A DNA stretch of 64,000 nt, taken from positions 1 to 64,000 of the IMG/VR virus record IMGVR_UViG_3300019751_000003, one strand, 5' to 3'. Both the position numbers and the translations under genes were made by a program. A model generated the notes under the pieces. The model saw only the letters and a program-made list of their open reading frames with translations. It ran no database searches and was not told the DNA's origin. Positions 1 to 41,263 of the stretch are shown here, piece by piece. The DNA comes from a virus. The number at the start of each line of letters is the position of its first letter. The first letter of the stretch is position 1.

Positions 1-2561
1 CCTGTATCACCTTTAGGACTTGAACCTTGAGCACCTTGAGCACCTTGGTCACCTTTAGGACCTTGAGCACCTTGAGGACTTGCCCCTTGAGCACCCGTTG
101 CTCCTTGAGCACCTTGAGGACCTTGAGCACCTTGAGCACCAGTTGGACTGGCACCTTGAGCACCTTGAGAACCTTTTGGTCCTTGAGCACCTGTATCTCC
201 TTTTGGACTTGCACCTTGAGCACCTTGTTCACCTTGAGGACCTTGAGCACCTTGAGCGCCAGTTGGACTGGCTCCTTGAGCACCTTGAGAACCTTTTGGT
301 CCTTGAGCACCTTGAGCTCCCGTAGGACTTGCACCTTGAGCACCTTGGTCACCTTGAGGACCTTGTGCCCCTGTATCACCTTTAGGACTCGAACCTTGAG
401 CACCTTGTGAACCTTTTGGTCCTTGAGCACCTTGAGCACCTTGAGGACTTGAACCTTGAGCACCTTGAGAACCTTTTGGTCCTTGAGCACCTTGTGCACC
501 AGTTGGACTTGCACCTTGAGCACCTTGGTCACCTTGAGGACCTTGAGCACCTTGAGCACCTTGGTCACCTTTAGGACTAGCACCTTGAGCACCTTGTTCA
601 CCTTGAGGACCTTGAGCACCTTGTGCACCAGTTGGACTGGCACCTTGTGCACCTTGAGAACCTTTTGGTCCTTGAGCACCTTGAGCCCCCGTAGGACTTG
701 CACCTTGAGCACCTTGAGAACCTTTAGGACCTTGAGCACCTGTATCTCCTTTTGGACTTGCACCTTGAGCACCTTGGTCACCTTGAGGACCTTGAGCACC
801 TTGTGCACCAGTTGGACTTGCACCTTGAGCACCTTGGTCACCTTTAGGACCTTGAGCACCTTGAGCCCCCGTAGGACTTGCTCCTTGAGCACCTTGAGGA
901 CCTTGAGCACCTTGAGCACCTGTATCACCTTTAGGACTTGAACCTTGAGCACCTTGAGCACCTTGGTCACCTTTAGGACCTTGTGCTCCCGTAGGACTTG
1001 CACCTTGAGCACCTTGTGAACCTTTTGGTCCTTGAGCACCTTGAGCGCCAGTTGGACTGGCACCTTGAGCACCTTGGTCACCTTTAGGACCTTGAGCACC
1101 TGTATCTCCTTTTGGACTTGCACCTTGAGCACCTTGTTCACCTTGAGGACCTTGAGCACCTTGAGCCCCCGTAGGACTTGCACCTTGAGCACCCGTACTT
1201 CCTTTAGGTCCTTGAGCACCTTGTGCACCAGTTGGACTGGCACCTTGAGCACCCGTATCTCCTTTAGGACCTTGTGCACCTGTATCTCCTTTAGGACTTG
1301 AACCTTGAGCACCTTGAGCACCTTGGTCACCTTTAGGACCTTGTGCTCCCGTAGGACTTGCACCTTGAGCACCTTGTGAACCTTTTGGTCCTTGTGCACC
1401 TTGAGCACCTTGAGGACTTGCACCTTGAGCACCTGTATTACCTTTAGGACCTTGTGCACCTTGAGCACCTTGGTCACCTTTAGGACTAGCACCTTGAGCA
1501 CCTTGTTCACCTTGAGGACCTTGAGCACCTTGTGCACCAGTTGGACTGGCACCTTGAGCACCCGTATCTCCTTTAGGACCTTGAGCACCTTGAGCACCTG
1601 TTGGACTTGCACCTTGAGCACCTTGGTCACCTTTAGGACCTTGAGCACCTTGTGAACCTTTTGGACTGGCACCTTGAGCACCTTGTGAACCTTTTGGTCC
1701 TTGTGCACCTGTATCTCCTTTAGGACTCGAACCTTGAGCACCTTGAGCACCTTGAGGTCCTTGAGCACCTTGAGCACCTGTTGGACTGGCACCTTGAGCA
1801 CCCTGTGAACCTTTTGGTCCTTGTGCACCTGTATCACCTTTAGGACTCGAACCTTGAGCACCTTGAGAACCTTTTGGTCCTTGAGCACCTGTATCACCTT
1901 TGGGACTTGCACCTTGAGCACCTTGAGAACCTTTTGGTCCTTGAGCACCTTGTGCACCAGTTGGACTTGCACCTTGAGCACCTTGAGAACCCTTTGGTCC
2001 TTGTGCACCTGTTGGACTTGCACCTTGAGCACCTTGAGAACCTTTTGGCCCTTGAGCACCTGTATCACCTTTTGGACTTGCACCTTGAGCACCCGTACTT
2101 CCTTTAGGTCCTTGAGCACCTTGAGCCCCCGTAGGACTTGCACCTTGAGCACCCGTACTTCCTTTAGGTCCTTGAGCACCTGTATCACCTTTAGGACTGG
2201 CACCTTGAGCACCTTGTGAACCTTTAGGTCCTTGAGCACCTGTATCACCTTTTGGACTTGCACCTTGAGCACCCGTACTTCCTTTAGGTCCTTGAGCACC
2301 TTGTGCACCTTGAGGACTTGCACCTTGAGAACCTTTTGGCCCTTGAGCACCTTGTGCACCTTGAGGACTTGCACCTTGAGAACCTTTTGGTCCTTGAGCA
2401 CCTTGTGTGGATGAACCTGAAGTACCTTGTGCACCTTGTGAACCTTTTGGCCCTTGAGAACTGGCACCTTGAGCACCCGTAGCACCTTTTGCACCTGTCG
2501 AACCTGCCGAACCTGTCGAACCTTTTTGTCCTTTTTGTCCTTTAGCACCTTGAGGACCTGT
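1..2561 (-). repeat. Collagen-coding tandem repeats, mainly 60-nt period
   Basis: Successive 60-base stretches line up almost column for column, for example from 61 to 540. Shifts of 9-base steps make some units shorter or longer. Each 60-base unit encodes 20 residues with six glycines and one GASP(K/T/Q)G interruption. The DNA is built from a few 9-base blocks encoding GAQ, GPK, GDT and GST. Such DNA is prone to slippage and recombination, so fibre length probably varies. Confidence 0.9.
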
Positions 2562-3005
2562 ATTGTGTATTAGTAACTCACCTACAAAGTAATTATGGTC
2601 TGGTTCTACTTCGATACTTATAAGTTCTATTGGTTTTTCAACTAATTTTACTGAAGTTATCTTTATTCCATTGAAAAATGGAGTAGTACCACATTTACAA
2701 TCACCACAACCACATGATTCGTTACCGACTGGTGAAACCCATTCACCATCTTTATATATTTTTATATCGACAGAAGTTTTTAGCTCAGTTCCGTCTGAAA
2801 GTTTAATTTGTAAGTAGGAATCGAGGGTTCTTTCCCATTTGGTTACAACCTTATTGTACCTAATGACTCCATTTTCAACATCATAACCTTTTATATAGTC
2901 ACCAAGTTCAATATTAGACAAATTGATTGGAACACCTTGTCTTTTATTTACTCTTCCTTTGATGTCTACTAAGGTATCTTTATGTAATCCATGTATATGT
3001 TCCAT
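1..3005 (-). CDS. Collagen-like tail fibre with N-terminal Hint-like domain (3' end outside window)
   Basis: An open frame starts at the ATG at 3005-3003 and stays open to the window edge, giving at least 1000 residues. An in-frame stop two codons upstream and the ribosome site AAAGGG fix this start. Residues 1-148 resemble a Hint (intein-fold) domain ending in [12 protein letters not shown] followed by Thr149. From about residue 150 the chain is Gly-X-Y-like (GPKG, GAQG, GDTG), with a GASPxG break roughly every 20 residues. Such chains form trimeric fibres in phages, so a tail fibre or fibre tip is inferred. It follows the 276-residue fibre gene by 10 bases. The C-terminus is not visible. 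Confidence 0.8.
2562..3005 (-). other. Degenerate Hint (intein-like) domain at the fibre N-terminus
   Basis: Residues 1-148 match the Hint fold: [15 protein letters not shown] near 32-46, a DGTELKTS strand near 71-78, and the C-terminal block [14 protein letters not shown] with His147-Asn148 before Thr149. Aligned with the intact copy at 32429-32839, Gly6 replaces the catalytic Cys1 and the block B His is Ile81. Only Asn-dependent C-terminal cleavage would remain possible. A Cys cluster (Cys98, 100, 103, 105) sits where larger inteins carry insertions. Whether it is active is unknown. Confidence 0.72.
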
Positions 3006-29085: not shown

Positions 29086-31731
29086 TTAATAGAAAAGGCC
29101 AAGGATTTGATTAAGAGGTGCGAATGTACCTGTTAACTTGTATGTACCACCTTTATATAGGAATACAATACCCTCGTTTGGTACTATCTTATCTCTTCCA
29201 CCAATACTCTTTAATCTTTCTAATTCCATTTTTAATTTTGTAATCTTTTTTGGGTCACCTGATTTCTGAACATCTTTGATTACTTTATCTAATTGTTTCT
29301 GAATATCACGAAGTGATTTATCAGGATTAACAGTAAGTGCTGATGACATAAATGAAAGTACTTCTGCACCAAGACCTAAAAATATATCTTCGAATGGTTT
29401 CATATTATTCTTAGCCATTTTCGAGTGGTCTATTTTATCTGTCTTGTTTGCCCAATCTCTTGTTTTAGAATCAGAAATGTTTTTCTTATCTAATCTAAAT
29501 GATTTATCATAAAACGCCCATCGTTTTACTAACCCCATTTTAGTTTTATTATCTAATGTGGTTGGTGAGTTTTTATCTACAAAATCACTCCACCATGCTT
29601 GATGGTAGTCTGCAACTCCATTAGAATCTTTTAGTTTAAATTCTTTTTGAAGTTTACTTACCTTCGATGAATAAATTGATTTCTTGTTTGATAAATCTTG
29701 ACTCCTCGGTATCTTAACAACTGGTGGTCCTTGGATAGTATAATTATCTTGAACATCGGCATTTACCTGCTTTATCATACCCGCTAATACTTTAGCGTCT
29801 GATGTATCAGCACCGATTGCTTTTCCATCTTCATTATATTCCATCGTTCCATGAAAGACTAATAGAGGTTGACCATATGGTATTACATTTACTGACTCCG
29901 GCCATATAACTTCAAGGTTCATAAATTTTGAGCCATCCTTGAATATTTTACTTCTTTGCGCATCGGAGAGTTTTGAAATGGCTGATTCTAAATCTCTCAT
30001 TGCGAAATTATACGCATCGGTCAACCCACCCCTATTAGCAAACTTATCGGCGACACCTTTGATGTCTAATGCGTTAAGTCCTCTGTCCTTGAGGTGTCCT
30101 TTATTTCTGGCAGCGATAATACCTCTATCTTTACGATATGATATAGCCAGAGCTTGTCCATCTGTTTTTTCTCTTGCAAATTCTAATGTACCTTCAAGAG
30201 CTTTTGATATGATTATTTTTAAATCACCAAATGTCAAATTTATTTCTGTATCGAATGGATGATTCATATGTCCATATGCTCCACCTTCCATAATCATACT
30301 TTCATTAAATATATTTTGTGTTCCTGCATTTCCAACATAGGACACAAAGTATAATCGTTGTTTACCAACTTTTTTAGAAAGTACTTGTCCTTCTTTACCT
30401 GAGTTGTCAAGTTCTTTTTTTGCATTATCAGGTTTTAAGTAAAAGTTTCTCTTTTGTTTCATTAAAGATGCTTTTTTACTTTTTGATTTCTTTTTTGGTT
30501 TTTTCTTTTCGTCAATGGTTGGTTCGTTATCATTTCCACACTCGTGACAGATATATAAGTCATCACCACCATCTTCTATTTTCCAACTATGGTCACATTC
30601 ATCACATTCAATCTTATCACCTACGATAGCTTCAAATCGTTTTAAATCTTCTTTTAGTGAAGCGGATTTACCTTGTTGTTTTTTTGTGAGGGTTTTAGGA
30701 GTAAGGTTATCTAAATCTTTTGGTTCAGCGAATTTAACAAATTCCATACCCAATCTCAATGCAACTTTCTTAATATGTTTTGCCCATTTCCTATAAGCAG
30801 GTCTACCAGTTATATCTTTACCATATCTCTTTTTCTGTCCATCCATAGTATCACCACTTGGAAAGAATGATACTTGATATCTACCAGGTCCATTTGGATA
30901 ATGGGTGTTAAACGATTCCATTGAGTCTTCGTCCATTAAGTAGTTTACAATATCCCAACCCAAGTCCCCAACAACTTCTTCCATCTCTGCTTTATAAGAT
31001 TTCATATTACCATAGAATGCACCTGGCCCATCATCTACAATACCTTTACCACTTGTTGGAATTTGTGAAGCTTCATTGATTAAACTATTAATGTTAATTG
31101 ATTGTAAAAAAGATTCCATTACGGATTCTACTGAGATTAATCTACCTGATACTAAGTTAAATATTTTTGGATTGAATTTACCATATACTTTTTTAAAGAA
31201 TGATTTTCTTTGAGAATCACTCCCTCTCGACATTCCCTTACGAACATCAGTTCCACTTATATTACCAAATGATGGTGATACATAAACATACCCTTTATCA
31301 TCGTACCCAGTATCAACACTTCCCTTTTTGTAAGGTAAGAAGTATTTTGAATAACCTGGACTTGTAAGTCTGCTTGCATCTTTTTTACCAACAACAGTAA
31401 TATATGCCGTTGTTTTAGATGGAAATTTTTCTATTACTTCTTTTGGTGAATATGGGTTTTTTACTTGAACAATTTTATTAGAAGGGATTTTAAACATCGT
31501 AGTCATAACTTCTCTTTTTTCTCTGAAGTTAAATGGATGTCTTGGTCCACCTTGTTTGTTTGATGTACCTATGAATACATTATTCTTACCAAACTTACTG
31601 ACAAGATGTTCGTAAACTTTTGCGTGTCCAGAATGGAAGGGTTGAAATCTACCTGAGTAAACTACTACCTCTTTTTTTATATCTTCACTCAGTATAGAGT
31701 CTACTACCCAATTTGTTAAAGTCTTTCCCAT
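29086..31731 (-). CDS. Cytidylyltransferase-like / zinc ribbon / KTDG-ligase fusion protein, 881 aa
   Basis: Residues 20-190 form an HxGH-type nucleotidyltransferase (VVVYSGRFQPFHSGHAKVY, His33-His36; ISGTDVR 158-164), like NMN adenylyl- or cytidylyl-transferases. Residues 376-398 are a Cys4 zinc ribbon (CDEC...CHEC). Residues 480-881 have covalent nucleotidyltransferase motifs of RNA/DNA ligases: KTDG (Lys522), FMNLEVI (603-609), EGIVFLY (853-859), TYKLTG (Lys865). Sites SLINE220|A and IFNE477|S separate the parts, and the leader ends SILSE|D. This looks like a gp21-processed cargo protein carrying two enzymes. Substrates are unknown; nucleic-acid repair or NAD-linked chemistry are options. 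Confidence 0.7.
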   Translation of the reverse strand: MGKTLTNWVVDSILSEDIKKEVVVYSGRFQPFHSGHAKVYEHLVSKFGKNNVFIGTSNKQGGPRHPFNFREKREVMTTMFKIPSNKIVQVKNPYSPKEVIEKFPSKTTAYITVVGKKDASRLTSPGYSKYFLPYKKGSVDTGYDDKGYVYVSPSFGNISGTDVRKGMSRGSDSQRKSFFKKVYGKFNPKIFNLVSGRLISVESVMESFLQSININSLINEASQIPTSGKGIVDDGPGAFYGNMKSYKAEMEEVVGDLGWDIVNYLMDEDSMESFNTHYPNGPGRYQVSFFPSGDTMDGQKKRYGKDITGRPAYRKWAKHIKKVALRLGMEFVKFAEPKDLDNLTPKTLTKKQQGKSASLKEDLKRFEAIVGDKIECDECDHSWKIEDGGDDLYICHECGNDNEPTIDEKKKPKKKSKSKKASLMKQKRNFYLKPDNAKKELDNSGKEGQVLSKKVGKQRLYFVSYVGNAGTQNIFNESMIMEGGAYGHMNHPFDTEINLTFGDLKIIISKALEGTLEFAREKTDGQALAISYRKDRGIIAARNKGHLKDRGLNALDIKGVADKFANRGGLTDAYNFAMRDLESAISKLSDAQRSKIFKDGSKFMNLEVIWPESVNVIPYGQPLLVFHGTMEYNEDGKAIGADTSDAKVLAGMIKQVNADVQDNYTIQGPPVVKIPRSQDLSNKKSIYSSKVSKLQKEFKLKDSNGVADYHQAWWSDFVDKNSPTTLDNKTKMGLVKRWAFYDKSFRLDKKNISDSKTRDWANKTDKIDHSKMAKNNMKPFEDIFLGLGAEVLSFMSSALTVNPDKSLRDIQKQLDKVIKDVQKSGDPKKITKLKMELERLKSIGGRDKIVPNEGIVFLYKGGTYKLTGTFAPLNQILGLFY

Positions 31732-31768: not shown

Positions 31769-34700
31769 TTATCCACAATACAAGTATCCATATACATTTT
31801 CCATTCTACCATTAGAATCCCATGAAGAGGATATCATACACTTTGCAACTGTATATGAGCTATGTGATTGTCTTTCTTCGTAAACTGGACTTGAACCACT
31901 AAATGAAGTTACCACCCACTCTGATGGTTGTTTCATTAGATAACCAGGCGTATCTGATGAACATAGTAAATCCCCTTTACTTACATCACCACCTTGGTTA
32001 CACAATTTAAAACCAGGCAAAACAAATGAACCTGATTCATCCTGCGTTACACTATCCCCAATAGAAGCCACTTTCCAAATTTCTTTAGAACCAGTTTGAC
32101 TTACAGGAATATAATCACCAAATGAATCTTTTCGTGATGCGGAGTAATATTCCTCAGGTGGGATAAGTTCGTCTGAATCACTTTCGTTATTTTTTCCTAA
32201 TGCAAATCCGTCAAATCTCGGAACTAAATTTAACTCAAGTTTTTCCCACAGAATTCCTACAACATTACTATCTTTTGCAGTTGTGACTTTTTGAAGTTCA
32301 TTATTTAGACCCAATTTAACTAAATCACCAGAATTAATATCTGATGTTATATCTTTTTTGTATTGGTGTCCAAGTGTTGTTTCAAATCCAGAAGGTGCAC
32401 CTGGCGAGGGTGATAATTTTGAAAGTGTGTTGTGTGAAAGTATTCCATTTGAAACATAGTTGTGAACTATATCTAATTCATAATTCCAAACTTCAACTTC
32501 TTCGTCAAAAGTTTCTACACTTTTTATTTTATCAATGAATATTTTTTCACCATCGACAACATATAACTCACCACCAATTCCAAGTTCATCTATTGCAATT
32601 TCAGAATTTGGATAATCGGGATGATATAGTAAATGTGAGTTAGAACATTTTAATTCTTTGTCTGATTCTGTTTTTATCAAACTCCACCCTTTAACTTTAT
32701 TAGTAGTAATTTCATCAATAGGTGACCATCCCCATTCTTTAGTTTCAAAGTTAAATACTTTTATTATATCATCGTCTTTGGTATCTTCTATATTTATCTC
32801 ACCTCTTTTAGTAATTACTTTAGTACCAGGTAATACACAACTATAACTTCCACCCGATGAAATCGCAGATGAAATAGAAGTCAATTCAGTATCAATATCA
32901 TCTTCAAGGTCTGTAAATCTTGTAGCAGCATTTTTAATAAGTCCATCAGCATCTACAAATCTTGGTACTTTTAGAATTAAACCAGTTGAGTCTACACCAA
33001 ACATGGTATTAAATGCTTTTGTTGTACTACCAGACTTGAAGGTTGCGGTATCTTCAAGAATTCCTTTAAATGTTGCAGTACCATCTTGTGCAATTTTAAA
33101 TTCAGGTGCTGAAATATATCCTGAAGAACCTAATGTAAAATCACCATAAGTATCATTTGCGGTTGCCGTTCCTTTTACTCCAATATGTGATGAACCAATT
33201 GTCCACCCACCAATAGAACCAGCTCCTGCGGTTACTGTACCATCAATGGATAATGTAGTTCCATCAAATTCAAGTTTTGGTGAACTTGTACCACCCATTT
33301 TAAATGTTCCTTTATCAAGACTTATTATAGAACCATTGGTAGTACTTAAATTGTTAGACCTAATTGTTCCTGTCTTAATTGAATCACCGCTAATTGTAGT
33401 AGAACCACCACCACCCGCGAACTCGGTAACTTTAATATAATCTATAAGTGTCTTACCTGCTTTATTAGAATAGTTTACAAGAATCATTGGTGCAAATGCG
33501 TTTGTTGTAGTCCAAACTTGACCTGGGTCATCAATGTTTGGGTGAAGGCCAGAAGTTTGGTAATATCCTGCAGTACCCTTAAAGTAACCTTTGTATATTA
33601 CCCATTCACCAACCGTTGGTTTTGCATTACTTGCAACAAAGTAGTGTTGAGAACCAAAATTACCTCCCGTACCAGTAGTATTACCTGCAGCATTAATTGC
33701 GGTAAGTTTCGTACTACCATCTGTATGTAATGAAGATGAGAATGCGGTTATACCTGCGTAAATTCCACCATCTCCTGAAGCTTCAGCTCTCTGTACTCTG
33801 ACTTCCATTTCATATAATGAGTTTGGATTAAATGGCATAACAGTATTTGAACTAAGCCAGGCCTGGTCGTCACTACCAGCATTATTACCAACTATAACTA
33901 CTGGCCCAAAGAATTGTCCGTAGTCTGTATCTGTAATTGAGTTGGCCGAAGTATTCGTTCCTGAATATAAATAAAATCCTACACCTGAACCATCTAATTT
34001 TGGATTATTTGATTGTTCTATATATGTGGGTCTTATTTCTCGTGTTGCTGGGTTAAAGTCTTCAAAGTATAATGCTTGTGGTTGATTTCTACCTACAAGT
34101 TCAACATCACCAGTAATTTTAATATTACCATTAGAACCACTAATCGATGTATTACCTCTACCAAAGAAAAATTCTTGTACTGCGAAGTCAACACCTGAAC
34201 CTGATATCAATAATGTTTTAGCCGTATTGTCCCATGCGAAATACCCTGCACCCAATGGACCTGAACCACTTCCTAAGTAGAAGTTACCATCATTATCCAT
34301 AAACGCGCTCATGTCATCGATTGTAGCTGCGGAAGTTAATGTATTATGATATCCAAGAACTTCACTATTCATTACCAACCCAGCTGGCGCAGGGAATGGA
34401 ACTGCGGATAATGTATCACCTAAGAAACTAAAGTCTTGATTGTCTGCACCTTGAGCACCTGTACTTCCTTTTGCACCTGTCGAACCTGCCGAACCTGCCG
34501 CACCCTTAGCACCTTGACCACCTTGAGCACCAGCACCACCTTGAGCACCCTTACCACCTTGAGCACCTGCCGAACCTTGTTTAGATTTAGCAAACGACAT
34601 AGTTTTTGCAATTATTACTTTTTGTGAACCACTACCACTAATTGCGTTAATTTCTAATGAACCAGAATCTTGTGTCAGACCCGTTATGGTAAAGTGATTA

Positions 34701-37700
34701 TGTCCGTTTGTTGTTGCGTTACCTGATGACCCACCTGCGGATTGTAGTTGACTAAATGAAACTCCATTTGAACCTGTACCTGCATACTTGTATGAATTAG
34801 TTTTATTGGTAATACCTTCAAATATAATCATATCAGTAATTGCACCATTCAATCCACCTGTTGCAATCGAACCTGCTGCGTTTGCAGGAATTGTATGTGA
34901 TTCATTTGTAAGGAACCCTGTTACCGCGTCAGAACCATCTGCACCTGGCGTTCCATCCGAACCACCTTCTACTTTAAATATTGTAATTGAATCAGATAAA
35001 TCACTTGCATTGTTTGCTACCTCAATTGTAATTGGAAATTGATTTTTATTGGTAACTTTCCCTGCTGCATTGGATGCACCATTGTCAAATGTTAATGTAA
35101 ATGTTTGAGTACCTGAACCATTTGTTATTGTACCACTCAATGCTGGGGTTGTAATAGGCCCACCACCACCTTTAGTAATTGTAATATCACCTGTATCAAT
35201 TGTATGTGCTAAGTTCTGTTGAACTACACTCATGGTAATTGTAGTAGGAGTTGCAGATGTATCACTTGAATCGTCAAATGCAAAAGTTTGAGAATCCGAA
35301 AGTAAAGTTAGTGACCTTGCCGTTGAACCATCCAAACCATCATCACCCTGTCTTGCTACTGCAACCGACATAGTTTTTGCAATTTGAGTACTTGAACTTA
35401 CTGCCGTTAATACAATAGAACCACTAAATGGTGAAGTTGTATTTGTAATGGTTACTGGATTAGTACCACTCGTTGTTATATGTGCTGATTTAGTAACAGA
35501 TATACTATAATCACTTGTACTATCAGTCACACCCTCAAATACTATCATCTCAGTACTTGCGCCTGCGAATGAAATAACTTCATCAGATGAACTTAATGGA
35601 AGTGTATGAGAATCGTTTGTTAAAAGCGCTGAAACTGCGGATGTACCATCTGAACCTGGCGAACCATCTGAACCACCTTCGACTTTAAATATTTTTACTG
35701 AATCAGTTAACCCATCTTTGGTACAAGAAATTTCAACAGGTAAAAATCCTTTAGTTTGTTGCATCCCACCTGCGGATTGTCCACCGACCCACTTTAAACT
35801 ACCACTTACAATACCAGTTCCATTTGAAACATCACTATTATCAAAAGCAAATCCCGTTACTACCGAACCACCATTTCTTGTAATTGTAATATCACTTGTT
35901 CCAATAGTACCTGTAAGATTTTGTTGTTGGAAACTAAATATAATATTAGATGGGGTTGCTGAAGTATCGGATGAATCATCGAAAGCAAATACAGGCGAAT
36001 CTAAACTACCAATTAGTAATTTAGCGGATGTACCAGGATTACCATCTGCACCTTGTTTAGTTCGTGTAAGTGACATTGTTTTAATCAATCGTGTACTTGA
36101 ACTAACTGCGTTAATTGTTAGTGACCCCGAATCAGCATTTAGGCCTGTTATACTAAAATGATTATGACCTGCCGTTGTTGCATTACCTGACGAACCACCT
36201 GCTGATTGTAAATGTGAAAATGTTGTTCCTGTCGATGCCGTAGCAGAGAATAAGTAATTAGATGATTTGTCTGTAACACCTTCGAATACTTTTACATCAG
36301 TTACACCACCTGCGAATGATGCAATACTACCACCAGAATCTGCAGGGAAGTTATGATTCTCGTTTGTTAAGAAAGCGGTAACTGCATCCGTTCCGTCTGT
36401 ACCAGATGTTCCACCTTCTACTTTAAATACTTTTATACTATCTGTAAATGTGTCTTTACTTACTTCAATTGTAATTGGTAAATGATTTTTAGATACGACT
36501 TTACCTGCCGCCGGACTTCCCCCATTTGCAAATAAAATACTACCACTTAATAAACCAGAACCATCACTTACATTACCACCTAATGATGGTGTTGTGATTG
36601 TTCCACCACCATTCTTAGTAATGGTAACATTACCTGTTGAAAGTGCCCCACTTAAATTTTGTTGATTGATAATAAACGATATTGAACTTGGTGTTGCAGT
36701 AGTATCTGCAGATGTATCAAAAGCGTAAACTTGAGAATCAACAGTAACTTGTAATGTTTTAGCATTAGAACCTGCGAGACCTGCAGTACCTTGTTTTGAT
36801 TTAACCAAGGACATTGTTTTTGCAAGTTGTGTACTTGAACTTACTGCAGTAATTACTACTGACCCACTATCGTGTCCTGCTGCTGATATTGTTAATACAT
36901 TTCCATTTGTACCACCCAATGTTGATGTTACTCCTAAACTACCTGTTCTACTATAAGAATAGTTTTCAGTTACATCTACAACACCTTCAAAAACAACCAT
37001 TTCTGAAGTTGCGTCATCAAAACTAACAACTGTTCCATCTGATTGTGCAGCGAAGGTATGTGCTTCATTGGTTAAGAATGCCGTTACTGCATCTTGACCA
37101 TCAGAACCTGGTGAACCATCTGAACCACCCTCTACCTTAAATAATTTTATTGTATCGGTTAATCCGTTTTTAGTTGCTGATATTGTAATTGGGAAATGTG
37201 ACTTAGTTCCTTCTATACCACCTGCATTTAGATTATTTCCAAACACAATACTACCACTTGCTATACCACTATACTTTCCATCAGTAGCACTTACATTGGT
37301 ATTATTGAAAGCAAAGTTTGTAATAGCATCATCACCTTGAGTTGTGATTGTAACATCACTACTTCCAATTGCGGCGTTTAAGTTTTGTTGGTTAAATGAG
37401 AATATAACATTTGCAGGTGTAGCTGAAGAATCACTTGAGTCGTCAAATGCCATCACTTGAGAATCTAAACTTGCTACTAATGTTTTAGCATTAGAACCTG
37501 CGAGTCCATCTGCACCTTTTGCACCTGCAGCACCTGCGGTTGATTTTGCAAGTGACATAGTTTTAACTAATTGAGTACTTGCACTAACTGCGGTTATTGT
37601 TAAAGAACCACTATCATGTCCCATTGAGGTTATACTAAATAAATTATCCCCAAAACCATGTCCATTTTGGGTATGGCCAAGTCCCACCGAACCTGTACCA

Positions 37701-40700
37701 CTAAATTTATAGTTTGATGTACTGTCGGTGATACCTTCAAAGACAACCATGTTAGTAACACCTTGAGTGAAGTCTGATATTGTTCCTGATGAGTTTGCAG
37801 GGAATGTATGTGATTCGTTAGTTAAGAATGCCGTTACTGCATCTTGACCATCTGTACCTGGCGTTCCGTCTGCACCACCTTGTACTTTAAATATTGTTGT
37901 ACTATCAGTTATATCATCTTTAGTAACCGATAGTGTTAATGGTAAATCAGTTTTATTTAATGACAATCCACTAAAAGATAAACTACCACTTTGTTGTCCT
38001 GACCCTGATACTATTCCCGAAGCCCCACCTAATGATGGTGTTGATATTGATGAACCACCTGCTTTAGTGATTGTGATATCACTTCCTGCGATTGTAGCTG
38101 ATAGGTTTTGTTGACTGATTGTAAAGTTAATTACATTCGGAGTTGCTGAAGTATCAGTAGAATCATCAAATGCGTACACCGATGAGTCGGTTGTTATTTG
38201 TAATGACTTTGCAGTTGCAGATTCCGTTACGGCGTTAATTGCTTCTTCTACTGATTGAAATCCACCGTCTGGTGCAGTTATTTGAATAGTACCTTTTACT
38301 ACTAAGTTAGTACCATCCCATGTAAATTTATCACCTAATGAGAATTTTGAATCTGAACCTAAAAAGAATCCTGTGTTTGTATTACCATGTGTTCCGACAC
38401 CTGTAAACAATTTGGAATCTTGCATTTTGATTCCACCAATAGAACCTGTGTTTGCTATTATACCACCTTGAAGGAATACATTATCAGTTGCCAATCCAAA
38501 TCCTGGATTTGAATTACCGAATACATAAGATGAGTTAGCCAACCCACTTAAGTCACCCAATCGAACTTTTAATCCAACATCATATAATCCACTACCCGTC
38601 CTTTCAACAATATCCATAAACGGAGTATTGGTGTCTCGTGGATTTGCATTCATTTTAATGTAACCACTACCACTCAGTCCAGTTGATACTATCACCTGAC
38701 CTTCATCGTATGGTTGAGCTGCTGATGCTAAATCACCAACAAAATCACCTTGTGACCCACTTCCATATCCTCTTGTTACATATAGTCTACCATGTACTTC
38801 GTCTGCGCCAGAATTATCACCATCAAGTGATGCCGAGTTTACTAAAATATATTCTGTTTGGAATCCTGTACTATCTACTTTTTTAGCTAATAGAATTTCA
38901 CCAACAGTAAACCCACTTGCATTCTTAACTGACATTGTTGTGTCATTTGCAGTAATGTTTGACCCTGTTAATGTTGTTGCGTTAGTAACCCATAGTTGAC
39001 CACCAACTGCGTTTACAGATTCTTTCTCAAATGTAGTTGTTCTTAGAGTACCTCTAATTCTTACATTTTCAAACTCTGCAGTTCCATTACCTTCTGAAGA
39101 TATTTTCCATCCTTTAAAATTACTTGCGAAATCTTTTGTCTGTAAAATACCTTCTGGTTTCATTATAAGATTACCACCCTCAATGGATGATGTTGTAATG
39201 TCCCATCCACCAATAGATGCCGATTGGAATATAGCAAATCCATCAGCGTCAATAGATGACGATGCGTTTTGTCTTGTAGAAGGGTTTCCACTAATTTGTG
39301 CAGGAGTACGAATGTTGTTTGCAGTAACTGCCCCTAAGATAGTTACACCATCTGTAATCGTACCACCTTCTATTAATACTTTTGATGCGGTTATATCACC
39401 TTGAGCTTTTAATCTTAATGAATTGTCTGATGACCTAATCTCATCTGAAACAACCTCAAATCCTGCAATAGATGCAGATGCGAATCTTGCAAAACCATCT
39501 TGGTCAATTGACGATGATGCGTTTGCTTTAGTTGATGGTGCACCATTAACTACGGCAGGAGTCCTAATTTGATTTACTGTAAGTGATGATTTTATTGTTG
39601 CGTTTGTACCAATTATCAATTGACCTGTGTTTGGGTCTAAGTGAAAGTCAGATGAACTAATTTCAATCTTACCATCCGAGCCACTCATAAATTGACTACC
39701 CGGCGTACCTATAAAAAACTTCTCTGCTTTTACATCTAATAAACCACTACCTGATGTTGTGAATATAAGGTGACTCTTATCATTCTCAGATACGAACTCA
39801 AATCCGACACCTTCCATTAAGTCACTACCAACTACCAAGTTACCACTACCAGAATATATTAAAAATCCACCTGGCCCTTTTCCTTCGGATGCGGATGTAA
39901 ATCCTTTATATCCAACAGACCTTAAGAATCCACTACTTGCTCCACCGATTTCAATACCACTACCTAATGCGTTTGATATAAAAATAGAACCTGTTATTAA
40001 AGAACCCTTACCACCAATAAAAGTAGTAGAACCTGGAAATACCACATCTTCTATTATAATGAAGGTTTCCGATGGTTCGTTTTTACTATTTAAGAATTCT
40101 ATTCTAATAGTCTTGGGGTCACCAATATGTTGAGATGGTATTGGTATTGTAAATATGAAGTCTGAACCATCAGTTGGTTCTATATATCGTGTTGTTGCAA
40201 TTGTTTCAAAATCAGTACCAAGTCCTTGTGATTTAACAGAGGTTCTTAGCAATTCAATTTTACCTGCAACTGGGTCGGCACTTGTGATTGTAAATGTAGA
40301 TACTGTTTGTAGGTTTTGTGATGTTCCTACCGATGCCGATGAAAAATATTCTATAAAAGTAGGAATGGTATCTGCGTCACTAAATCTGTACTGGTGTTCT
40401 TGACTACCTGTTATAGGGTCTTTTATTTGTAATATGTTACTACTTGATACACTTAAGATAGATGATGTAAAACTTGTTGGTTGTTCAACACCCGTTTGTC
40501 TTGGGAAAATAGTGGTCGATGATAAGTCTAATCTTACCTCACCACCAATCATCATACTATTAAATCCACTACCAGCCGTTTTGGTTAGAATTACATCATC
40601 ACCAAAAGTTGACCTTTGATACTTGACACTATGTGTATCTGTTGTTAATGTTAGGGTTGCGTTTCTACCCTGACCCAATTCATCTTCAGTTTCTTGATTT

Positions 40701-41263
40701 AATTCAAATGTACTAAATGGTTGTAAACTTGCAGATATTGATGCGAGTGGTAAAAGCTTTTCATTGAAAATAATATCGGAAGAAGACCCCTGATTTACTC
40801 TTACAGGAATATCTCTATTCCACCTTACTGCGTTTCCATTTCTAGCCGTACCTATAATTGTTACTTTTGCAATTCCAGATGCGGTATTTTCTGAAGGGTC
40901 TGTTCTATCTGTATAAACCCAAATACTAACTATCTTACTTCCATCTCGGTCCTTTCCATTCATTATTTCAAAATAGATTGGATTTCCGTTTGAATCAAGA
41001 ACCTCTATTTGTATTTCAGAGTTTCTTTTAAGTGAGTTAGAACCCGTTAACCTTATTGTGTTTTTACCTGACCCAAAGAATTCGGGCACTTCCGTTACAT
41101 TAAAAAATGTTGAGTTTGGATTGGTGTCTTCTACAACAGGTGGTTTCGCAGGTGAAAATCGTGGGGTCGGTCCAGACCTTGAATCTCTTAAACTCGCACT
41201 TGTTCTTGGTGCGAATTGTTTGTTTAGATTTTTCTTACCTCTTCTTCTGAATGGTATTGCCAT
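31769..41263 (-). CDS. Giant tail fibre/tail tip protein with mini-intein, 3164 aa
   Basis: N-terminal 120 residues are basic (RRRGKKNLNKQF) then beta-rich. Residues ~560-720 carry two ASSSID(Q/A)DGFA repeats. Residues ~1016-2220 are five tandem ~240-residue repeats marked by FKVEGG and AVTAFLTNESHTF. A collagen-like GAQGGKGAQGG stretch spans ~2221-2274. A full mini-intein occupies 2809-2945. The last 220 residues (PGFKLCNQGGDVSKGDLLCSS, ENVYGYLYCG) match C-terminal domains of marine phage fibres. It follows gp46/47 with a 19-base gap and a motif 21 bases upstream. Host recognition or tail-tip assembly is inferred. Confidence 0.8.
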   Translation of the reverse strand: MAIPFRRRGKKNLNKQFAPRTSASLRDSRSGPTPRFSPAKPPVVEDTNPNSTFFNVTEVPEFFGSGKNTIRLTGSNSLKRNSEIQIEVLDSNGNPIYFEIMNGKDRDGSKIVSIWVYTDRTDPSENTASGIAKVTIIGTARNGNAVRWNRDIPVRVNQGSSSDIIFNEKLLPLASISASLQPFSTFELNQETEDELGQGRNATLTLTTDTHSVKYQRSTFGDDVILTKTAGSGFNSMMIGGEVRLDLSSTTIFPRQTGVEQPTSFTSSILSVSSSNILQIKDPITGSQEHQYRFSDADTIPTFIEYFSSASVGTSQNLQTVSTFTITSADPVAGKIELLRTSVKSQGLGTDFETIATTRYIEPTDGSDFIFTIPIPSQHIGDPKTIRIEFLNSKNEPSETFIIIEDVVFPGSTTFIGGKGSLITGSIFISNALGSGIEIGGASSGFLRSVGYKGFTSASEGKGPGGFLIYSGSGNLVVGSDLMEGVGFEFVSENDKSHLIFTTSGSGLLDVKAEKFFIGTPGSQFMSGSDGKIEISSSDFHLDPNTGQLIIGTNATIKSSLTVNQIRTPAVVNGAPSTKANASSSIDQDGFARFASASIAGFEVVSDEIRSSDNSLRLKAQGDITASKVLIEGGTITDGVTILGAVTANNIRTPAQISGNPSTRQNASSSIDADGFAIFQSASIGGWDITTSSIEGGNLIMKPEGILQTKDFASNFKGWKISSEGNGTAEFENVRIRGTLRTTTFEKESVNAVGGQLWVTNATTLTGSNITANDTTMSVKNASGFTVGEILLAKKVDSTGFQTEYILVNSASLDGDNSGADEVHGRLYVTRGYGSGSQGDFVGDLASAAQPYDEGQVIVSTGLSGSGYIKMNANPRDTNTPFMDIVERTGSGLYDVGLKVRLGDLSGLANSSYVFGNSNPGFGLATDNVFLQGGIIANTGSIGGIKMQDSKLFTGVGTHGNTNTGFFLGSDSKFSLGDKFTWDGTNLVVKGTIQITAPDGGFQSVEEAINAVTESATAKSLQITTDSSVYAFDDSTDTSATPNVINFTISQQNLSATIAGSDITITKAGGSSISTPSLGGASGIVSGSGQQSGSLSFSGLSLNKTDLPLTLSVTKDDITDSTTIFKVQGGADGTPGTDGQDAVTAFLTNESHTFPANSSGTISDFTQGVTNMVVFEGITDSTSNYKFSGTGSVGLGHTQNGHGFGDNLFSITSMGHDSGSLTITAVSASTQLVKTMSLAKSTAGAAGAKGADGLAGSNAKTLVASLDSQVMAFDDSSDSSATPANVIFSFNQQNLNAAIGSSDVTITTQGDDAITNFAFNNTNVSATDGKYSGIASGSIVFGNNLNAGGIEGTKSHFPITISATKNGLTDTIKLFKVEGGSDGSPGSDGQDAVTAFLTNEAHTFAAQSDGTVVSFDDATSEMVVFEGVVDVTENYSYSRTGSLGVTSTLGGTNGNVLTISAAGHDSGSVVITAVSSSTQLAKTMSLVKSKQGTAGLAGSNAKTLQVTVDSQVYAFDTSADTTATPSSISFIINQQNLSGALSTGNVTITKNGGGTITTPSLGGNVSDGSGLLSGSILFANGGSPAAGKVVSKNHLPITIEVSKDTFTDSIKVFKVEGGTSGTDGTDAVTAFLTNENHNFPADSGGSIASFAGGVTDVKVFEGVTDKSSNYLFSATASTGTTFSHLQSAGGSSGNATTAGHNHFSITGLNADSGSLTINAVSSSTRLIKTMSLTRTKQGADGNPGTSAKLLIGSLDSPVFAFDDSSDTSATPSNIIFSFQQQNLTGTIGTSDITITRNGGSVVTGFAFDNSDVSNGTGIVSGSLKWVGGQSAGGMQQTKGFLPVEISCTKDGLTDSVKIFKVEGGSDGSPGSDGTSAVSALLTNDSHTLPLSSSDEVISFAGASTEMIVFEGVTDSTSDYSISVTKSAHITTSGTNPVTITNTTSPFSGSIVLTAVSSSTQIAKTMSVAVARQGDDGLDGSTARSLTLLSDSQTFAFDDSSDTSATPTTITMSVVQQNLAHTIDTGDITITKGGGGPITTPALSGTITNGSGTQTFTLTFDNGASNAAGKVTNKNQFPITIEVANNASDLSDSITIFKVEGGSDGTPGADGSDAVTGFLTNESHTIPANAAGSIATGGLNGAITDMIIFEGITNKTNSYKYAGTGSNGVSFSQLQSAGGSSGNATTNGHNHFTITGLTQDSGSLEINAISGSGSQKVIIAKTMSFAKSKQGSAGAQGGKGAQGGAGAQGGQGAKGAAGSAGSTGAKGSTGAQGADNQDFSFLGDTLSAVPFPAPAGLVMNSEVLGYHNTLTSAATIDDMSAFMDNDGNFYLGSGSGPLGAGYFAWDNTAKTLLISGSGVDFAVQEFFFGRGNTSISGSNGNIKITGDVELVGRNQPQALYFEDFNPATREIRPTYIEQSNNPKLDGSGVGFYLYSGTNTSANSITDTDYGQFFGPVVIVGNNAGSDDQAWLSSNTVMPFNPNSLYEMEVRVQRAEASGDGGIYAGITAFSSSLHTDGSTKLTAINAAGNTTGTGGNFGSQHYFVASNAKPTVGEWVIYKGYFKGTAGYYQTSGLHPNIDDPGQVWTTTNAFAPMILVNYSNKAGKTLIDYIKVTEFAGGGGSTTISGDSIKTGTIRSNNLSTTNGSIISLDKGTFKMGGTSSPKLEFDGTTLSIDGTVTAGAGSIGGWTIGSSHIGVKGTATANDTYGDFTLGSSGYISAPEFKIAQDGTATFKGILEDTATFKSGSTTKAFNTMFGVDSTGLILKVPRFVDADGLIKNAATRFTDLEDDIDTELTSISSAISSGGSYSCVLPGTKVITKRGEINIEDTKDDDIIKVFNFETKEWGWSPIDEITTNKVKGWSLIKTESDKELKCSNSHLLYHPDYPNSEIAIDELGIGGELYVVDGEKIFIDKIKSVETFDEEVEVWNYELDIVHNYVSNGILSHNTLSKLSPSPGAPSGFETTLGHQYKKDITSDINSGDLVKLGLNNELQKVTTAKDSNVVGILWEKLELNLVPRFDGFALGKNNESDSDELIPPEEYYSASRKDSFGDYIPVSQTGSKEIWKVASIGDSVTQDESGSFVLPGFKLCNQGGDVSKGDLLCSSDTPGYLMKQPSEWVVTSFSGSSPVYEERQSHSSYTVAKCMISSSWDSNGRMENVYGYLYCG
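32429..32839 (-). other. Complete mini-intein (Hint domain) inside the 3164-aa tail protein
   Basis: 137 residues run from Cys2809 (CVLPGTKVITKRGEINIEDT) to Asn2945 (LDIVHNYVSNGILSHN), followed by Thr2946. Cys1, a block B S-x-x-H (SNSH, 66-69 of the domain), the block F strand, the penultimate His and the terminal Asn are all present. There is no homing endonuclease. Splicing would join GGSYS to TLSKL. It could be a true splicing intein or a bacterial-intein-like domain that mostly cleaves. Confidence 0.85.
34430..38220 (-). repeat. Five ~700-745-bp coding repeats plus collagen tract
   Basis: Units begin near 38215, 37495, 36770, 36027 and 35330. Each encodes (A/S)K-L....DS.-.AFDDSSDTSATP, a QQNL strand, FKVEGG(S/T)DG, (D/S)AV(T/S)(A/G)(F/L)LTN(E/D).H and TMS. 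They end in a collagen-like tract at about 34435-34580. Copies have diverged, so the duplications are old. Confidence 0.85.

What the first reader, a model, noticed from the sequence alone, without database searches (positions are those of the whole stretch)
2562..3005. Degenerate Hint domain at the start of a collagen-like fibre
The domain keeps the C-terminal [14 protein letters not shown] block but has Gly6 at the Cys1 position and no block B His. It can only plausibly do Asn-driven C-terminal cleavage, releasing the collagen chain with a new Thr149 N-terminus. The same phage carries an intact copy, so the two may be a duplicated pair specialised differently.
Basis: partly seen in the sequence, partly recalled or inferred. 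Interest (0 to 1): 0.74.

Follow-up and report, generated by a model that had tools for sequence, protein, structure and literature searches.

The report
Self-cleaving Hint cap on phage collagen
A family of uncultured phages starts a long collagen-like protein with an intein-like (Hint) domain that has lost the parts needed to splice but keeps, without exception, the parts needed to cut itself off from the collagen, so it looks like a natural self-removing cap on a viral collagen.

Summary
Residues 1-148 of a minus-strand ORF (2562-3005) form a Hint domain joined directly to an 852-residue collagen tract that runs off the end of the virus record. Sequence profile and predicted fold both match gp41-1 intein and BIL domains.

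It is not a decayed singleton: 31 IMG/VR loci carry the same Hint-collagen gene. In 20 distinct sequences the Cys1 place is Gly, Ala or Ser, block-B His is never present, and the block-F Asp that restrains C-cleavage is an invariant Ser. The C-cleavage kit (His137, His147, Asn148, then Thr149-Gly-Pro) is invariant, while its codons vary synonymously. Best reading: an N-terminal propeptide that removes itself by Asn cyclisation, releasing collagen with Thr149 first. Cleavage is inferred; no product was seen.

The 'duplicated pair' idea is not supported: the intact Hint in the 3164-aa ORF is 22% identical, BIL-like, and not found in 14 related records. A likelier partner is a second collagen gene directly downstream in all 13 relatives where it can be read; it too begins with a Hint-fold domain ending in His-Asn, but with Asp for the block-F His. 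The main rival is a structural Hint module that does not cleave.

The parts
2562..3005 (-). Hint domain, residues 1-148, at the N-terminus of the collagen-like ORF
   Evidence: translation; profile match to BIL2, gp41-1 and 2lwy; predicted fold
2988..2993 (-). His5 (invariant, position -1) and Gly6 (Cys1 place; Gly, Ala or Ser in the family)
   Evidence: register from the gp41-1 alignment
2763..2774 (-). block B Ser78-Val-Asp-Ile81; Ile81 is at the place of the block-B His
2616..2618 (-). Ser130, invariant, at the block-F Asp place (Asp107 of gp41-1)
2595..2597 (-). His137, block-F His (F:13), invariant
2559..2567 (-). His147-Asn148|Thr149, predicted cleavage site after Asn148
   Evidence: invariant in 20 of 20, synonymous codon changes
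1..2558 (-). collagen-like tract from Gly150 to the end of the record (gene incomplete)
   Evidence: Gly spacings only 3 (213 times) or 5 (42 times); no stop

Best explanation
The domain is a self-removing N-terminal propeptide. It is a Hint domain that no longer activates its N-terminal side and so cannot splice. It folds, Asn148 cyclises with help from His137 and His147, and the Asn148-Thr149 bond is cut. This frees a collagen-like chain starting TGPQG, so that the Gly-X-Y repeat begins at its second residue. The cap probably keeps the long chain soluble or delays its trimerisation until it is cut off, after which the chain builds a virion fibre. Shown: Hint fold (predicted), family-wide conservation pattern, fixed architecture. 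Inferred: cleavage, its timing, and the fibre role.
For: His137, His147, Asn148 and Thr149 are invariant in 20 distinct sequences that are as little as 37% identical to the window's, with synonymous codon changes at these sites in the 15 sequences examined. Cys1 and block-B His are gone in all, and the block-F Asp is Ser in all. Published: gp41-1 C1A cleaves at its C-terminus, its block-F Asp limits that cleavage and D107G speeds it (PMC12245125); Ssp DnaB C1A releases C-terminal fusions in vivo (PMC4339811); His F:13 and His G:6 assist Asn cyclisation (PMC4031507). The collagen repeat begins immediately after the predicted cut in every member.
Against: No cleavage product was observed. C1A-type changes slow C-cleavage in a laboratory intein. 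Plain C-cleavage does not require Thr at +1 or an invariant Ile4-His5. The sister family keeps His-Asn while lacking block-F His, so His-Asn can persist for other reasons. The model is poor for residues 1-7, and one alignment put Cys1 opposite His5 rather than Gly6.
Confidence: 0.62

Rival explanations
1. Non-catalytic structural module: the Hint fold stays on the protein and serves as an attachment or trimer-registration domain; the His-Asn end is kept for packing.
For: The tandem sister gene keeps a Hint-fold N-terminus with His-Asn but has lost block-F His and varies at +1, including Pro. A more distant relative sits at the N-terminus of a non-collagen protein of over 2000 residues in other phages, so a recurrent N-terminal module is possible.
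Against: In the finding's family the whole C-cleavage set, not only His-Asn, is invariant, and the block-F Asp that slows cleavage is replaced throughout.
Confidence: 0.27
2. Non-canonical splicing (class 2- or class 3-like): Thr149 or Ser130 attacks the His5-Gly6 bond directly, joining MELIH to TGPxG.
For: Thr149, Ser130 and Ile4-His5 are all invariant, which plain C-cleavage does not explain; four sequences have Ser at position 6.
Against: Class 2 needs His B:10 and Asp F:4, both absent. Class 3 needs the Trp-Cys-Thr set; Cys F:4 and the Thr before His-Asn are absent, and no Trp stands at the corresponding block-B place.
Confidence: 0.06
3. Decaying intein remnant without function.
For: Loss of Cys1 and block-B His.
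Against: Purifying selection, fixed architecture in 31 loci, invariant C-cleavage residues.
Confidence: 0.03

Closest known systems
gp41-1 intein (phage-type class 1 intein), and its C1A and D107G variants used for C-cleavage
   Same: Hint fold, SxxX block B, His-Asn C-terminus; profile match 1.4e-7, Z 16.4; the phage domain has small residues at Cys1 and no Asp at F:4, as the laboratory C-cleaving variants do
   Different: not inserted inside a protein: only 5 residues precede it; no Cys1, no block-B His; Thr123 before His-Asn, which gp41-1 needs for fast cleavage, is Val, Ile, Leu, Phe or Met here
Bacterial intein-like (BIL) domains, type A (2lwy; Tetrahymena BIL2 6tmm)
   Same: closest fold and profile; His-Asn end; cleavage is their main reaction
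   Different: BIL-A domains start by thioester formation at their N-terminus and lack a nucleophile at +1; here Cys1 is absent and Thr +1 is invariant
PT-HINT (pretoxin Hint) of polymorphic toxins
   Same: a Hint placed just before the part to be released; proposed autoproteolytic release of what follows (PMC3482391); 16 of 20 members match the Pfam model at E 0.1 or better, best 1.2e-7
   Different: no toxin, no secretion stalk; the released part is collagen; the window's own sequence is below the Pfam cut-off
Intramolecular chaperone autocleavage domains of phage tailspikes
   Same: works-like analogy: a self-removing folding domain on a trimeric phage fibre (seen in literature results; details from own knowledge)
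   Different: C-terminal rather than N-terminal, and a different fold and chemistry (own knowledge; sequence homology not tested)

Membership tests
Hint superfamily | Hint fold | tested here: met
   AlphaFold2 model; all 50 listed Foldseek rows are Hint structures; Z 18.6 to BIL2
Hint superfamily | sequence relation to known Hint domains | tested here: met
   profile E 1.8e-9 to BIL2, 1.4e-7 to gp41-1
Class 1 intein | Cys1 or Ser1 together with block-B His | tested here: not met
   position 6 is G 13, A 3, S 4; position 81 never His
Class 2 intein | His B:10, Asp F:4, Cys +1 | tested here: not met
   I/V/S/A/L at 81, Ser130, Thr149 (requirements)
Class 3 intein | Trp-Cys-Thr motif | tested here: not met
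   Ser130 at F:4 and V/I/L/F/M at 146 (motif)
BIL type A | N-terminal Cys for thioester formation | tested here: not met
BIL type A | C-terminal His-Asn | tested here: met
   invariant His147-Asn148
PT-HINT | Pfam PF07591 above the curated cut-off | tested here: not met
   window sequence 21.3 bits against 27.7; some relatives score better
C-cleaving Hint (works like) | His F:13, His G:6 and Asn G:7 present | tested here: met
   H137, H147, N148 in 20 of 20
C-cleaving Hint (works like) | actual cleavage of the Asn-Thr bond | not testable with these tools
   needs protein expression or virion proteomics
Collagen-like protein | Gly every third residue | tested here: met
   Gly spacing 3 in 213 of 255 intervals, 5 in the other 42

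The most novel reading that the evidence does not exclude
A non-splicing branch of Hint domains dedicated to C-cleavage, acting as N-propeptides of viral collagens in a two-gene module: the first Hint removes itself to free a bare collagen, the second (block-F His replaced by Asp) stays on, so that two collagen chains with different N-termini build one fibre.
Probability: 0.3. Interest if true: 0.75.

Novelty: new variant of a known kind. Interest (0 to 1): 0.6.

Why it matters
Laboratory C-cleaving inteins are made by mutating Cys1, and mutating the block-F Asp speeds them; this family appears to carry both kinds of change naturally, held by selection. If it cleaves, it would be a natural C-cleavage-only Hint used as a propeptide, would show how a phage handles a collagen chain of about 1000 residues before assembly, and could supply new cleavage tags.

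Tried and rejected
Duplicated pair with the intact copy: rejected on 22% identity and no match in 14 related records, some of which may be incomplete. GTDB genomes: no relative. INPHARED phages by tblastn: no relative. Class 2 and class 3 splicing: defining residues absent. N-extein supplied by an upstream fusion: relatives have only 0-33 in-frame residues before the start and a separate upstream gene. Profile comparison of the sister domain with the intact Hint gave nothing, and its profile found no Hint in PDB sequences, although its predicted fold listed only Hint structures. Searches of the held papers found no report of a Hint-collagen phage protein; papers outside that library were not searched.

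Full report
WHAT IS THERE. The window is bases 1-64,000 of an 83,394-base IMG/VR virus record. On the minus strand an ATG at 3003-3005 opens a frame that stays open to base 1, the end of the record: 1001 codons. Residues 1-148 end ...[15 protein letters not shown]; residue 149 is Thr, and residue 150 begins a collagen tract in which glycines are spaced only by 3 (213 times) or 5 (42 times), with a G[A/S]S(P) break about every 19 residues. Relatives whose gene is complete are 942-1502 residues long and end in a short non-collagen tail. The gene lies beside fibre-like genes and a gene with a baseplate wedge / tail-fibre connector match, so a virion fibre is likely but not shown. The terminase is nearest to those of Flavobacterium and Microcystis phages, at about 58% identity, so the host is uncertain.

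IT IS A HINT DOMAIN. Pfam alone is weak (PT-HINT 21.3 bits, cut-off 27.7). A profile of 20 family members matches Tetrahymena BIL2 at 1.8e-9, gp41-1 intein at 1.4e-7 and BIL 2lwy at 1.8e-7. An AlphaFold2 model (mean pLDDT 76.4, pTM 0.72) gave only Hint structures among the 50 rows listed; Z is 18.6 to BIL2, 17.4 to 2lwy and 16.4 to gp41-1.

THE FAMILY. Peptide-pattern scans of IMG/VR gave 21 and then 23 loci. A DNA scan for HNTGPxGxxG gave 42 stretches: 31 have this Hint domain directly upstream, and the other 11 have no Hint there. A scan built only from the N-terminal part of the domain gave 27 loci: 26 lie on contigs whose junction reads His-Asn-Thr-Gly-Pro, and one is cut off before the junction. 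The junction printout caught an earlier LHN in ten of these loci and should not be read alone. No relative was found in GTDB genomes or INPHARED.

ACTIVE-SITE LEDGER (20 distinct sequences; register from the gp41-1 and BIL2 alignments). Cys1 place, residue 6: G 13, A 3, S 4. B:7, residue 78: S 19, T 1. B:10, residue 81: I, V, S, A or L, never His. F:4, residue 130 (Asp107 of gp41-1): Ser in all. F:13, His137: all. G:6, His147: all. G:7, Asn148: all. +1, Thr149: all, followed by Gly-Pro in all. Ile4-His5, just before the Cys1 place: all. In the 15 sequences examined at codon level these amino acids are fixed while codons move: H147 CAC/CAT, N148 AAC/AAT, T149 all four; pairwise dN/dS is about 0.05-0.38.

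MECHANISM. His F:13 and His G:6 are proposed to assist Asn cyclisation (PMC4031507). A gp41-1 C1A intein cleaves at its C-terminus, Asp107 limits that cleavage and D107G speeds it (PMC12245125); a DnaB C1A intein does so in vivo, more slowly at low temperature (PMC4339811). The phage domain combines loss of Cys1, loss of block-B His and replacement of the F:4 Asp with a complete C-cleavage site. The best reading is therefore C-terminal self-removal, with a product that starts at Thr149. This is inference from sequence; no cleavage product was observed. The invariance of Thr at +1 is not explained by plain C-cleavage.

THE SECOND HINT-COLLAGEN GENE. In all 13 relatives with sequence beyond the stop codon of the first gene, a second collagen-like ORF starts about 13-24 bases later. 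Its N-terminal domain ends in [VI]HN in all 13 and has F, A, P, V, N or S at +1; the 11 aligned have Asp where the block-F His would be. Profile comparison with the finding's family gives 79% probability and E 1.6e-5; its predicted fold (pLDDT 70.8) lists only Hint structures in PDB, with weaker scores. The window's record stops before this gene. A more distant relative sits at the N-terminus of a protein of over 2000 residues in other phages.

THE 'INTACT COPY'. A Hint with Cys1, SxxH and His-Asn lies near the C-terminus of the 3164-residue ORF, at 32429-32839. It is 22% identical to the finding's domain. Its relatives have T, V, M, A or G at +1, as expected for BIL domains. Among 15 records carrying the Hint-collagen gene, only this one gave a clear match (the two weak hits elsewhere are the Hint-collagen domains themselves). 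It is not the duplicated partner.

CAUTIONS. The five sequences added from the HNTGPxGxxG scan have that motif by construction; the other 15 were found with patterns that do not include His147-Asn148, though some include His137. The model is poor for residues 1-7, so the Cys1 register rests on sequence. Retention of His-Asn in the sister family that lost block-F His shows that His-Asn alone is no proof of cleavage.

Noticed in passing
window 2691-2714 (-): Cys98-x-Cys-x2-Cys-x-Cys105 motif in the loop between blocks B and F, where full inteins carry an endonuclease; Cys-rich in the clade of the window and absent from the other clades. Possibly a metal or redox switch; not tested.
   Followed up: partly
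window 1-2558 (-): Collagen tract with strikingly regular breaks: Gly spacing of 5 at G[A/S]S(P) about every 19 residues, 42 times.
   Followed up: partly
L026, L027, L029, L031, L035, L036, L038-L040, L042, L043, L072, L081, downstream of the Hint-collagen gene: A second collagen-like gene with its own N-terminal Hint-fold domain, invariant His-Asn end and Asp in place of block-F His.
   Followed up: yes
L149-L151 and L155, around 6001: Distant relatives of that second domain, without Cys1, at the N-terminus of a protein of over 2000 residues in other phages.
   Followed up: partly
window 31769-41263 (-): A 3164-residue fibre-like ORF with a short collagen stretch and a BIL-like Hint near its C-terminus; relatives L047-L056 vary at +1.
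   Followed up: partly
window 29086-31731 (-): 881-residue ORF with a cytidylyltransferase-like domain among the structural genes.
   Followed up: no
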